In this document: piece by piece, positions 29,831 to 40,435 of the stretch | Layout of the letters: every line of letters starts with the position of its first letter | How positions within the stretch are numbered: the stretch's first letter is position 1 | Assembly: GCA_017528825.1 (NCBI GenBank) | Contig: JAFXOI010000025.1 | Location: 1-50,248 of the forward strand | DNA from: Elusimicrobiaceae bacterium | Lineage (GTDB): Bacteria > Elusimicrobiota > Elusimicrobia > Elusimicrobiales > Elusimicrobiaceae | Length of the DNA stretch: 50,248 bases | Reading direction: 5' to 3' | Made by a program: the position numbers and the translations under genes | Notes under the pieces: model-generated | Databases searched by the model: none | What the model saw: only the letters and a program-made list of their open reading frames with translations | Told to the model about the DNA's origin: nothing

Positions 29831-30511
29831 CTATGGAAGTATATATTCATAGGCGCAACCAGTTCCCTTGTAAGAGCCATTAAAAATTTTTTGGCAATAA
29901 TCACCTTTATTTTTAGTAAATTTGTAATTTGTGTTGATACAACTAAAATATTCGGAACAAGAAATATTTCCGTTAGCCTCAGACATATTTGGTTTATAAA
30001 ATGAAACGATTCGAAAGGTGCCCCCTTTATAAGGACCTGTTAAACGTACCATATTAAAAGCTATTGTTTCATGATTTTGATACAATTGAAGTGCCCAGTC
30101 TTTATTCGTTTTTTGATCTACAACAACACTAGCAATGATTTCACGTGTGTCTTGTTGTAAAGGAATATCTATATCCAATAAATCAAAACGATTTGCATAT
30201 TCTCCATTGGCTAAGTAATATCGTTCATTCGCAAGCCATACCTGTCTCAGTAATTGTATGGCTTCTGTAGCTTTTGCCTTTTCTACGGCCTTTTCATATT
30301 GCGGCAGGGCAATAGCAGATAAAATACCGATAATCAGTACGACGACCAACAATTCAATGAGTGTAAAAGCTTTTTTTGTCGTCATCCCGGACATGGATCC
30401 GGGATCCAGTCTGTTTATGAAGGTATTTTCCTTATTAACGGCCTGGATTGTGGGTCCACGCCCGCAATGACGGCTTTTTTGATTGTTTCTATTTTCTTTT
30501 TTCATCATCAT
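29831..30511 (-). CDS. Type IV pilin-like protein with repeat-extended leader
   Basis: 226 aa as read from 30511. The pilin signal is TTKKA^FTLIELL with mature Phe at residue 49, so the leader is 48 residues, against 4-8 in its relatives. The extra leader is the in-frame translation of a palindromic repeat (30381-30471). An alternative start is ATG 30385 (MTTKKA), which has only a poor ribosome site; the upstream start MMMKK also has just a weak GAG. The mature part is of the [15 protein letters not shown] subclass, with CSEYFSC and two further Cys near the end. A structured RNA ends about 40 bp upstream. An A7 tract in the KK codons just before the cleavage site is a possible slippage point. 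Confidence 0.8.
30381..30471. repeat. Palindromic dispersed repeat, copy 2, inside the pilin leader
   Basis: A 91-bp element with GTCAT and ATGAC at the ends, an inner CCCGGA/TCCGGG hairpin, an ATCCAG (30404)/CTGGAT pair, and a TGTGGG/CCCGCA pair near the right end. It is flanked by near-identical GCTTTTTTTG (30369-30378) and GCTTTTTTG (30473-30481), which could be a target duplication. It remains open in the pilin frame. Confidence 0.7.
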
Positions 30512-30549: not shown

Positions 30550-30575
30550 AAAAAACGGCTGCCTTATTTGAGCCG
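30550..30575 (-). terminator. Terminator of pilin leader RNA 1
   Basis: CGGCT pairs with AGCCG around a 10-nt loop, followed by T6 on the minus strand. The 3' arm CAGCCGT can instead pair with ACGGCTG of the RNA core (7 bp), an antiterminator-like alternative. Confidence 0.75.
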
Positions 30576-30812
30576 ATCTGAACAACCCAAATAAAACAGC
30601 CGTGGTCTGCCGTTCTTGCGAACGGCAAACACTTGGCACAAAACAAACGGCTCATGACTTCCGTTCATTTTGTGCCTATAACGACTGCTTTTGGATTCAG
30701 ATCGTGTTTTCAGTTTTCTGAAAACAAGTCCGCATTCTACATGCGGTTCCAAAAACAGATTAAATTGTAATTTGCGCCCTTGTGGGGCGGTTTCATCCTC
30801 CCTAAATAGGAT
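30550..30812 (-). ncRNA. Pilin leader RNA, copy 1 (unrecognised structured RNA)
   Basis: About 260 nt, 5' end near 30812. Stems in order on the RNA: 30785-30789/30775-30779; CCGCAT/ATGCGG (30746-30730); an U-rich hairpin TTTTCAG/CTGAAAA; a long-range closing helix (30703-30696 with 30582-30575) enclosing CAGTCGT/ACGGCTG (30687-30681 with 30603-30597), GGCACAAAA/TTTTGTGCC (30676-30668 with 30643-30635) and an 11-bp hairpin with a GCAA GNRA loop (30630-30605). A terminator follows (30575-30550). The copy at 40159 has the same fold with compensatory changes. Confidence 0.8.
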
Positions 30813-30818
30813 AATTTT

Positions 30819-30846
30819 ATTATACTAATTTGTTTTTATTCGTCAA
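30819..30846 (-). promoter_or_regulatory. Promoter of pilin leader RNA 1
   Basis: Minus strand: -35 TTGACG (30846-30841), 16-nt spacer, -10 TATAAT (30824-30819), a near-consensus promoter placed to start the structured RNA. Confidence 0.75.
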
Positions 30847-30950
30847 TCTTTTTCATTTTTCCCCCTCGTCAATGAGGGGCTTTTTTTGCTATCTTAAAAA
30901 TAGTTGCAATAAAATTGCCATCTTTTGTGTTATATAGATGTGAGGCGTTT

Positions 30951-31514
30951 ATGAGCCAGCGTAGCGATGATGAATTGGTACAAGGGTGCCAGCAAGGGAA
31001 AGAGGAAGATTTTAATGAATTAGTATATCGGTATAAAAACAGTTTATACCAATATATTCTGGCTCTCACACGCGACGAAGGAGCCGCGGGAGATATTTTC
31101 CAAGAGGTGTTTTTAAGTTTCTACCGTCGTATTGGAGAATATAAACCGGAAGGAAAATTGAAAAGTTATTTATTCACTTCGGCGCGCAATCGGGTACTTA
31201 ATTATTTTCGGGATCGGGATAAAGCGATTTCTTTGGATGATACCGATGAGGAAGGAACGCCGTATTTGCACCAAGAAGTAGCCGGAAATGATCTTTCACC
31301 GTTGGAGGGATTGGCGCAGGCGGAAGGATTAGAAAAAATTCGTATGGCATCGCTCTTGCTCCCCCCCAAACAACGGGAAGCGGTATATTTGAAACAATTA
31401 ATGACGTTTCAGGAAATGGCCGAAATGTTACAACGCCCCTTAGGAAGTGTACTGGCGGATTATCATCGGGGCATACGTAAAATGCAAGAAGTATTAAAAG
31501 AGGAAAATTTATGA
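30951..31514 (+). CDS. ECF-type RNA polymerase sigma factor
   Basis: 187 aa from the ATG at 30951, which has GAGG upstream. Region 2 (DELVQGCQQG.. through FQEVFLSFYRRI..YLFTSARN) and region 4 (about 130-180, PPKQREAVYLKQL..EMAEML..GSVLADYHRG) are both present; no region 3, as in ECF factors. Directs transcription of an envelope or stress regulon that cannot be read here. The stop overlaps the anti-sigma gene start by 4 bases. A C7 run at 31361-31367, between regions 2 and 4, could slip and inactivate it. Confidence 0.93.
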   Translation: MSQRSDDELVQGCQQGKEEDFNELVYRYKNSLYQYILALTRDEGAAGDIFQEVFLSFYRRIGEYKPEGKLKSYLFTSARNRVLNYFRDRDKAISLDDTDEEGTPYLHQEVAGNDLSPLEGLAQAEGLEKIRMASLLLPPKQREAVYLKQLMTFQEMAEMLQRPLGSVLADYHRGIRKMQEVLKEENL

Positions 31515-31909
31515 AAAATATATGCGAACAAGCGGCTTTGTATTTTTACGGTGAAATGGACGCACAGCAAGCCGCTCAATTTAAGCAACATCTTGCTAAT
31601 TGTGAGGCCTGCCGACGGGAAATAGCCTTTTTGCAGGCCACGCAGGAGGCTTTGTTCCCCCCCGCCGCGCCGCAAGCGATTGTAGAGCGGGTTTTGCAAG
31701 GGAAAAAAATACCTTTTTGGAAACGTGTGTATAAACTGGCTTTGGGAGGAGCTTTGGTGTTGATACTGGGGGTATATGGATTTTTCCATTTGCCTTTGAA
31801 TCAGACCGAACAGAACAACACGGACTGGATTGCTTATGTGTCTGTAGAAGCGGATACACAATATCAAAGTTTTGTGACGGATTTTGAAGCATTTGAAAAC
31901 GATTTTTAG
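31511..31909 (+). CDS. Membrane anti-sigma factor with zinc-finger (ZAS/zf-HC2) domain
   Basis: 132 aa. Cytosolic N-terminal zinc-finger with H27-x3-C31-x2-C34, one TM helix at about 76-94, and a short periplasmic tail. It would hold the upstream sigma factor at the membrane until a signal releases it. Overlapped start and ATGA coupling fit sigma/anti-sigma pairs. A C7 tract (31657-31663) lies between the zinc-finger and TM regions. Confidence 0.88.
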   Translation: MKNICEQAALYFYGEMDAQQAAQFKQHLANCEACRREIAFLQATQEALFPPAAPQAIVERVLQGKKIPFWKRVYKLALGGALVLILGVYGFFHLPLNQTEQNNTDWIAYVSVEADTQYQSFVTDFEAFENDF

Positions 31910-39626: not shown

Positions 39627-40127
39627 TTATAGGTCATTATCTACATATTCCCAACCTAGCGCTTCATATTGCTTACAAATCTTACGGCCTAAATCGTTGG
39701 TCTCTGTAATACAAGCATTATACCAACCATCTACTGCTGAATCATCATTGTAGATTTTCTCTTGAGTGCTACGTAGGGCATACAGATCTCCTTGAGCTCC
39801 TGTTCTATAAATTTCAATATATCCACCAGAACTAGTAATACCTGCACCATACTGAAAATATTTTGTAAAGCAACTATTAGCATCCCACTCGCAGGGTAAT
39901 TCCACATTTGCAAACTCTTCATATCCTATTCTATCACTTGGCAATCCGTTTTCCATAATATACACTTGCATTTGTCGTTTCATGGTTGCAATATTAGTCA
40001 TGGCTTCGGCGGCGCGGGATTTTTCCACTGCAATCGTATATTGCGGCAAGGCAATGGCCGACAAAATGCCTATAATCAATACGACCACTAATAATTCAAT
40101 CAGGGTAAAACCTCTTTTATGTTTCAT
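39627..40127 (-). CDS. Type IV pilin-like protein
   Basis: 166 aa from ATG 40127, after an AAGGAG site; upstream in-frame sequence is the structured RNA. Leader MKHKRG^FTLIELL with Gly at -1 and Glu at +5; IALPQYTIAVEKSRAAEAM places it with the 9802 and 30511 subclass. The tail has three or four spaced Cys (CEWDANSC, C..C), and is of normal pilin length. The same unrecognised RNA precedes it as at 30511. Its N-terminus is near identical to other pilins here while the tail is not. Confidence 0.87.
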   Translation of the reverse strand: MKHKRGFTLIELLVVVLIIGILSAIALPQYTIAVEKSRAAEAMTNIATMKRQMQVYIMENGLPSDRIGYEEFANVELPCEWDANSCFTKYFQYGAGITSSGGYIEIYRTGAQGDLYALRSTQEKIYNDDSAVDGWYNACITETNDLGRKICKQYEALGWEYVDNDL

Positions 40128-40158
40128 ACAAGCTCCTTTTTGTTTTTGGAACAGACAT

Positions 40159-40184
40159 AAAAAACGGCCGCTACGCTTGAGCCT
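40159..40184 (-). terminator. Terminator of pilin leader RNA 2
   Basis: GGCT pairs with GGCC (one wobble) across a 9-10-nt loop and is followed by T6. The 3' arm CGGCCGT can also pair with the core strand ACGGCTG. Confidence 0.65.
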
Positions 40185-40401
40185 ATCTAGGTAACCCAAT
40201 ACATAACAGCCGTGGTCTGCCACTCTTGCGAGTGGCAAACACTCGGCACTAAACAGCCGGGTAATTAGTCCGTCCATTTAGTGCCTAAAACGACTGTTCT
40301 TGGACCTAGATAGTGCCTTGTCTGTACAAAGCTCTCCGTGTTCTGCACACGGTTCCAAAAACAGAATAAATTGTAAGCAGGGGATTGGCCTGCGGTACTA
40401 C
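40159..40401 (-). ncRNA. Pilin leader RNA, copy 2 (unrecognised structured RNA)
   Basis: About 243 nt, 5' end near 40401. Same stem order as copy 1: GCAGG/CCTGC (40393-40377); CCGTGT/ACACGG (40352-40336); a CTTTGT/ACAAGG hairpin; closing helix 40313-40304 with 40192-40183; CAGTCGT/ACGGCTG (40296-40290 with 40213-40207); GGCACTAAA/TTTAGTGCC (40285-40277 with 40253-40245); the 11-bp GNRA-capped hairpin (40240-40215); terminator. Unpaired blocks TTTTTGGAACCG and AGGCAC are identical in both copies. Confidence 0.8.
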
Positions 40402-40407
40402 CTTGAT

Positions 40408-40435
40408 AGTATAGCTTATTTTTGCTTTTATGCAA
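40408..40435 (-). promoter_or_regulatory. Promoter of pilin leader RNA 2
   Basis: Minus strand: -35 TTGCAT (40435-40430), 16-nt spacer, -10 TATACT (40413-40408). The same spacer length as copy 1. The -35 lies 15 bp from the -10 of the divergent decarboxylase gene, so the two promoters overlap. Confidence 0.65.

What the first reader, a model, noticed from the sequence alone, without database searches (positions are those of the whole stretch)
30550..30812. Unrecognised structured RNA upstream of a pilin, copy 1
Seen: about 260 nt between a near-consensus promoter and an intrinsic terminator, just before a pilin gene. Compared with copy 2 (40159-40401) the fold is kept while pairs change together. 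In the closing helix G-C becomes U-A, G-C becomes A-U, and two A-U become G-C. In the GNRA-capped hairpin G-C becomes A-U and U-A becomes C-G. There are two compensating pairs in the CCGCAT/CCGTGT hairpin and one in GGCACAAAA/GGCACUAAA. About nine compensatory changes in two sequences is strong evidence of a selected RNA fold. I do not recognise it as a known riboswitch, 6S, tmRNA, SRP or RNase P RNA. It may be a standalone RNA or a pilin-control riboswitch.
Basis: partly seen in the sequence, partly recalled or inferred. Interest (0 to 1): 0.87.

Follow-up and report, generated by a model that had tools for sequence, protein, structure and literature searches.

The report
Multicopy RNA switch before pilin genes
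Gut bacteria of the phylum Elusimicrobiota carry up to about 120 copies per genome of a previously undescribed RNA switch, each placed before a pilin or other surface gene, which can fold in two mutually exclusive ways and so appears to decide whether that gene is transcribed.

Summary
The RNA lies on the minus strand. No Rfam family matches. The genome holds about 45 diverged copies and a relative about 120. 63 of 199 Elusimicrobiota genomes have it. At least 33 of 38 copies here precede a type IV pilin ORF. In other genomes it also precedes outer-membrane proteins, glycosyltransferases and restriction genes.

It is a cis-acting transcription attenuator with two mutually exclusive folds. One is helix P1 plus an intrinsic terminator. 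The other is a long antiterminator whose outer 9 pairs differ in almost every copy yet stay complementary. Both folds show covariation. Predicted folding switches as expected.

A hairpin loop carries one of six different 6-nt palindromes (86 of 123 gap-free copies; null maximum 27), suggesting kissing-loop dimers. A downstream segment is copy-specifically complementary to the ribosome-binding site. The effector is unknown. No paper describing it was found.

The parts
30819..30846 (-). copy 1 promoter TTGACG-16-TATAAT
   Evidence: 11 of 12 consensus positions
30749..30758 (-). copy 1 P1 5' arm CUGUUUUUGG (nearly invariant)
30730..30746 (-). copy 1 hairpin P2 (CCGCAU..AUGCGG)
   Evidence: covariation
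30706..30725 (-). copy 1 hairpin P3
30695..30703 (-). copy 1 antiterminator strand a (copy-specific)
   Evidence: pairs with strand b
30682..30694 (-). copy 1 P1 3' arm plus YCG (CCAAAAGCAGUCG); pairs either with the P1 5' arm or with the terminator 5' arm
30635..30676 (-). copy 1 hairpin P4 with palindromic apical loop (AAGUCAUGAG; UCAUGA)
30602..30632 (-). copy 1 hairpin P5 (GNRA loop, bulged U, covarying basal R-Y pair)
30556..30602 (-). copy 1 intrinsic terminator hairpin (T5/T3), followed by U-tract 30555-30550
30575..30582 (-). copy 1 antiterminator strand b, in the terminator apical loop
30533..30546 (-). copy 1 post-terminator segment complementary to the terminator 3' arm (class A)
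   Evidence: read from sequence
29831..30511 (-). controlled gene, copy 1: type IV pilin-like protein with N_methyl domain
   Evidence: PF07963, PF16732
40408..40436 (-). copy 2 promoter TTTGCA-17-TATACT
40355..40364 (-). copy 2 P1 5' arm
40336..40352 (-). copy 2 hairpin P2
40304..40312 (-). copy 2 antiterminator strand a
40291..40303 (-). copy 2 P1 3' arm plus YCG
40245..40285 (-). copy 2 hairpin P4, loop palindrome UAAUUA at 40262-40267
40212..40242 (-). copy 2 hairpin P5
40165..40212 (-). copy 2 terminator hairpin, then U-tract; strand b at 40184-40192
40141..40151 (-). copy 2 post-terminator CCAAAAACA, complementary to the P1 5' arm (class B)
39627..40127 (-). controlled gene, copy 2: type IV pilin-like protein (N_methyl); SD AAGGAG within 40133-40141

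Best explanation
It is a cis-acting transcription-attenuation leader RNA of about 250 nt, present in many copies per genome. Its own promoter makes an RNA that folds in one of two mutually exclusive ways. OFF: P1 (CUGUUUUUGG:CCAAAAACAG) plus terminator T5:T3 and its U-tract stop transcription. ON: strand a plus the P1 3' arm plus YCG pair with the terminator 5' arm plus strand b, a long antiterminator that encloses P4 and P5. This breaks P1 and frees the terminator's 3' arm, so polymerase reads into the pilin or other surface gene. In the read-through RNA a post-terminator segment can cover the ribosome-binding site. The P1 5' arm, or the terminator 3' arm, freed in the ON state, is complementary to that segment and could uncover it. 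SHOWN by sequence comparison: both helices exist and are selected; promoter, terminator and gene order; palindromic P4 loop; complementarity to the SD/start region. INFERRED: that the switch is used in the cell, which way the signal pushes it, the post-terminator lock, and the signal itself. The most likely signal input is the conserved P4/P5 junction (a protein, a ligand, or an RNA partner joining through the P4 loop).
For: Terminator-state helices: 96.8% of 6632 cells paired, 36 of 47 pairs with double changes, 0 of 500 shuffles reach this; slid controls give 34-51%. Antiterminator helix: 94.7% of 2257 cells paired, 578 double-change cells against 169 in shuffles, slid controls 27-44%. Against a null that reshuffles substitutions along a tree, all nine a:b pairs score above every null alignment in the fitted alignment, and seven of the nine do in an alignment made without structure. 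The a:b complementarity is copy-specific in all four groups, z = 16 to 43, including the distant family f10. Predicted folds: transcripts ending after strand b have antiterminator probability 0.98 and P1 0.00; full-length have P1 0.98 and terminator 0.98 (own genome). YCG after P1 is unpaired in the OFF fold but conserved. Gene order promoter, RNA, terminator, SD, ORF in nearly all copies. G-U far exceeds A-C in the helices (458 against 88), so this strand is the one that folds.
Against: No expression or probing data. The effector is not identified, and sequences were compared only within one phylum. Thermodynamic folding ignores kinetics, proteins and tertiary contacts. The post-terminator ribosome-site pairing is not significant in family f10, and the downstream P1-arm complement is weak in G103. 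In the full-length RNA the a:b strands could in principle also form a pseudoknot with the terminator loop, so a:b covariation alone does not order the two states in time.
Confidence: 0.85

Rival explanations
1. Metabolite or second-messenger riboswitch in the strict sense: the P4/P5 junction (or the P1/P2/P3 junction) is an aptamer for a small molecule such as a cyclic dinucleotide, which picks between the two folds.
For: The anatomy is that of a riboswitch expression platform. Some junction positions outside helices are strongly conserved (A136, A165, A93, U138). Three GGDEF-domain genes exist in the genome, so c-di-GMP is possible, and pilins are known c-di-GMP targets (established knowledge).
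Against: No match to any riboswitch family in Rfam. Most invariant columns are switching strands rather than an unpaired core. About 120 copies in one genome would be unprecedented for a ligand riboswitch (from memory).
Confidence: 0.4
2. RNA-RNA control: leaders dimerise through palindromic P4 loops (a kissing complex like the retroviral dimerisation site), so terminated leader RNAs act on nascent leaders of the same loop class and couple expression of many pilin genes.
For: 86 of 123 gap-free loop hexamers are perfect palindromes of six different sequences; column-shuffle null mean 15, maximum 27 in 2000 shuffles. Columns 113-116 covary as Watson-Crick pairs though only two bases lie between them, which one hairpin can hardly form. 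Common loops have the 2+6+1 layout of a DIS loop (the comparison is from memory).
Against: About a third of copies have non-palindromic hexamers, mainly the loop CUGAUCC with only GAUC self-complementary. No dimer has been measured. Whether dimers favour ON or OFF is unknown.
Confidence: 0.4
3. Protein-directed antitermination, for example a specialised NusG paralogue (RfaH, UpxY or LoaP type) or an RNA-binding antiterminator that holds the P4/P5 junction.
For: Targets are surface-structure genes, as for RfaH and UpxY (established knowledge). Conserved hairpins precede the terminator.
Against: The genome has one NusG-domain gene, the ordinary one beside L11 and L1. The RNA itself encodes a complete antiterminator, which NusG paralogues do not need. 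Other RNA-binding proteins were not searched for.
Confidence: 0.15
4. Leader-peptide attenuation or a T-box: translation of a short ORF, or a bound tRNA, selects the fold.
For: Two-state attenuator anatomy; UUGGAA superficially resembles the UGGN of T-boxes.
Against: Few copies have an SD plus start codon in the 5' leader, and the short ORFs share no sequence. No T-box hit in Rfam.
Confidence: 0.04
5. A multicopy DNA repeat or mobile element (attC-like or REP-like folded DNA), not a regulatory RNA.
For: Many diverged copies; two contigs end inside a copy.
Against: The order promoter, element, U-tract, SD, ORF is fixed and always in the same orientation to the gene; two mutually exclusive helices are selected.
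Confidence: 0.03

Closest known systems
Transcription-attenuating riboswitches (SAM-I, guanine, lysine type expression platforms)
   Same: Multi-helix domain, P1-like helix competing with an antiterminator, intrinsic terminator before the SD and ORF
   Different: No ligand known; no Rfam match; tens to over 100 copies per genome; antiterminator outer helix has a different sequence in almost every copy; palindromic loop
c-di-GMP and cAMP-GMP riboswitches (GEMM), which also control pilin-related genes
   Same: Control of pilins; leader with terminator
   Different: No Rfam hit; different helices and motifs
RfaH/ops, UpxY and LoaP leader antitermination
   Same: Surface-structure genes blocked by leader termination
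   Different: No NusG paralogue found in this genome; antiterminator encoded in the RNA
Retroviral dimerisation initiation site (DIS) kissing loop
   Same: 9-nt loop holding a 6-nt palindrome with 2 nt before and 1 after
   Different: Bacterial leader; palindrome sequence changes between copies; dimer not measured
Plasmid RNA-RNA attenuation (RNAI/RNAII type)
   Same: Possible trans action of a loop on a nascent leader that decides termination
   Different: Partners here would be copies of the same leader, not an antisense RNA

Membership tests
Rfam release 15 families (all 4227) | covariance-model score at or above the gathering threshold | tested here: not met
   none over the element in the window and 18 loci; only chance-level weak hits
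Two-state transcription attenuator | intrinsic terminator directly before the controlled gene | tested here: met
Two-state transcription attenuator | antiterminator mutually exclusive with the terminator, supported by covariation | tested here: met
Two-state transcription attenuator | signal-dependent change in read-through | not testable with these tools
   needs transcription assays
Riboswitch (ligand-binding) | direct binding of a small molecule | not testable with these tools
   no probing possible
Riboswitch (ligand-binding) | conserved unpaired core | tested here: inconclusive
   several invariant junction bases, but most invariant columns are switching strands
T-box | match to the T-box model | tested here: not met
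Leader-peptide attenuation | conserved translated short ORF in the leader | tested here: not met
RfaH/UpxY/LoaP antitermination | specialised NusG paralogue in the genome | tested here: not met
   one canonical NusG in a 95% complete genome
Kissing-loop dimer RNA | self-complementary apical loop kept under sequence change | tested here: met
Kissing-loop dimer RNA | dimer in solution | not testable with these tools
   needs native gel or SAXS
6S RNA, tmRNA, SRP RNA, RNase P RNA | match to the family model | tested here: not met

The most novel reading that the evidence does not exclude
A self-recognising gene-control network: tens to over a hundred leader RNAs in one genome share a few palindromic kissing-loop classes, so terminated leaders bind nascent leaders in trans and set which pilin and surface genes are transcribed. 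This would be an RNA-only, dosage- or identity-sensing system for surface variation.
Probability: 0.3. Interest if true: 0.95.

Novelty: new variant of a known kind. Interest (0 to 1): 0.82.

Why it matters
It adds a large, apparently undescribed class of bacterial control RNA in a poorly studied gut phylum, with far more copies per genome than any leader RNA I know of (from memory). Because each copy is a separate variant, the family is a natural mutagenesis experiment in which both states of a switch can be read from sequence. It gives a handle on how bacteria with 58 to more than 150 pilin genes choose which to express. The changing palindromic loops make an old question, whether leader RNAs of different genes act on each other, directly testable.

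Tried and rejected
Plus-strand RNA: rejected. Promoter, terminator and SD lie on the minus strand, and G-U exceeds A-C 458 to 88 when read on that strand. Pseudoknot as the main reading of a:b: I first read it so, then found that a:b continues the nested P1 3' arm:T5 helix, so it is the antiterminator. Selection for orthogonal a:b strings between copies: rejected; trans pairs of at least 8 of 9 are about 1%, not fewer than random strings would give (and arithmetic). Viral carriers: five viral contigs matched the P1 pattern, but only over the P1 segment (model positions 13-85) at low scores. c-di-GMP switch by Rfam: no hit; GGDEF genes present, so open as chemistry. NusG paralogue: none. A first promoter/leader scan mistook the conserved TACAAT for a -10 box and was discarded, then redone. 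The first antiterminator-probability script misplaced T5 in some copies, including copy 2, and was redone by alignment columns. One structure string was too short and was repeated. The first version of the post-terminator script stopped with an error before reaching family f10. R-scape itself was not available; an R-scape-like null was written instead.

Full report
WHAT IS THERE. The element lies on the minus strand at 30550-30812 and 40159-40412. Copy 1 has a near-consensus promoter (TTGACG-16-TATAAT) and a 20-pair terminator with six Us; copy 2 has a weaker promoter. Both fold far better than dinucleotide shuffles, z = -9.4 and -7.1. Rfam gives nothing at gathering level in the window or over the element in 18 other loci, and only chance-level hits below it. 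The genes that follow both copies carry the pilin N-methylation domain.

HOW MANY AND WHERE. A DNA search of the host genome (1.53 Mb, 41 contigs) found about 40 diverged copies. A covariance model built from 38 of them finds about 45 at E below 1e-16. In 199 genomes of the phylum, 63 have a match. They lie in two genera of the same family (f1) and in several genera of one other family (f10); a single borderline f19 hit was not confirmed. Counts vary widely: about 128 matches in G103, 48 in G013, 25 in G100, 22 in G170, and none above the threshold in G055. The counts may include a few antisense echoes, and the G103 count is limited by the number of scored candidates. Five viral contigs match only weakly over P1.

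WHAT IT CONTROLS. In this genome at least 33 of 38 full copies lead straight into a type IV pilin ORF, 34 if one with an extended leader and a variant motif (C5:83040) is counted by eye. Others precede a lipoprotein-like ORF, a DUF4422-like protein (by its similarity in reading to the DUF4422 protein of L127) and unassigned ORFs. In G103 at least 72 of 80 precede pilins. In other genomes the best-scoring copies mostly precede other genes: outer-membrane beta-barrels, lipoproteins, polysaccharide pyruvyl transferase, rhamnan synthesis protein, family 8 glycosyltransferases, DUF4422, a sulfatase, and restriction or DNA-modification genes such as GmrSD and an EcoRI-type methylase. The genome has 114 N-methylation-domain pilin matches, so only about a third carry the RNA; G034 has 80 and G055 has 58, with no RNA in G034 and none above 1e-6 in G055. 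The RNA is thus a module attached to some pilins and some other surface or accessory genes, not a part of pilin genes as such.

THE TWO FOLDS. The terminator fold has P1 (CUGUUUUUGG:CCAAAAACAG) closing P2 and P3, then P4, P5 and the terminator T5:T3. In 142 sequences 96.8% of cells pair, and 36 of 47 pairs show double changes. A second helix joins strand a (just 5' of the P1 3' arm) to strand b (in the terminator loop) and continues inward as the P1 3' arm plus YCG against T5. It uses the P1 3' arm and T5, so it excludes both P1 and the terminator. There 94.7% of cells pair, with 578 double-change cells against 169 in shuffles. In a null that reshuffles substitutions along the tree, all nine a:b pairs exceed the null in the fitted alignment and seven of nine in an alignment made without structure. 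The helix also holds in the distant family f10: cis against trans z = 15.9.

Partition-function folding agrees. Transcripts that end after strand b, before the terminator's 3' arm is made, have antiterminator probability 0.98, a:b 0.84 and P1 0.00 in this genome. Full-length transcripts have P1 0.98 and terminator 0.98. Copy 1 and copy 2 both behave this way. This is a textbook attenuator. The prediction ignores kinetics and any bound partner, so it does not say which outcome prevails in the cell.

THE PALINDROMIC LOOP. The apical loop of P4 holds a perfect 6-nt palindrome in 86 of 123 gap-free copies: UAAUUA, UUAUAA, UCAUGA, UUCGAA, UUGCAA and CUAUAG. Independent column shuffles give 15 on average and never more than 27. 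The inner columns covary as Watson-Crick pairs although only two bases separate them, which a hairpin can hardly form. The simplest reading is a selected intermolecular kissing contact. The common layout, two bases, palindrome, one base, is that of the retroviral DIS loop (from memory). The main other loop, CUGAUCC, keeps only GAUC. Dimerisation is an inference.

AFTER THE TERMINATOR. In this genome 67% of copies carry, before the SD, a copy of the P1 3' arm (complementary to the P1 5' arm) against 5% at a control position. Some copies, such as copy 1, instead carry a copy-specific complement of the terminator 3' arm (read from sequence). Separately, the post-terminator segment is copy-specifically complementary to the SD/start region: z = 8.7, 9.2 and 7.8 in three groups, but not in f10. 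So the read-through RNA probably hides its ribosome site, and strands freed in the antiterminated state could uncover it. This step is inferred.

WHAT SETS THE SWITCH. Unknown. A NusG paralogue is unlikely: one gene, the ordinary one next to L11 and L1. A leader peptide is unlikely. A small molecule, a protein at the P4/P5 junction, or other leader RNAs through the P4 loop all remain; I rate the first and the last about equally.

LITERATURE. Searches of the open-access library for the phylum with riboswitch, noncoding RNA, RNA motif, pilin and kissing-loop terms found no description of this element. Two Endomicrobium papers mention pilins but, in the passages found, not their control (PMC8809381, PMC11257099). 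Subscription papers are not covered, so prior description cannot be excluded.

LIMITS. Paralogous copies are related, and covariation counts are not independent events. E-values of the model are rough. Copy counts come from MAGs. All functional statements are from sequence and predicted folding.

Noticed in passing
window 30370-30511 (-); also L034, L043, L054: Several RNA-linked pilins have the N-terminal leader (before the FTLIELL motif) lengthened by about 20-45 residues encoded by repeat-like DNA, reminiscent of in-frame palindromic insertions; in copy 1 this holds GTCATTGCGGGCGTGGACCC, found once in the window.
   Followed up: partly
whole genome G000: 114 matches to the pilin N-methylation domain in a 1.5 Mb genome; G034 has 80 and G055 has 58 with no confident RNA copy.
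   Followed up: partly
G000:C15:1-141 and G000:C16:1-141: Two contigs end inside an identical 141-nt stretch of the element, so the repeats break the assembly and copy counts are approximate.
   Followed up: no
window 30915-31909 (+): Divergent from copy 1 is what reads like an ECF sigma factor gene followed by a short zinc-finger-like protein (reading of the sequence only).
   Followed up: no
L149:1268-1696 (-): Two copies of the element in tandem before an EcoRI-type methylase gene in family f10.
   Followed up: no
5' end of many copies, upstream of P1: A variable hairpin and a conserved ACAAUUUAAU precede P1; some copies also carry an AGGAG without a start codon after it.
   Followed up: partly
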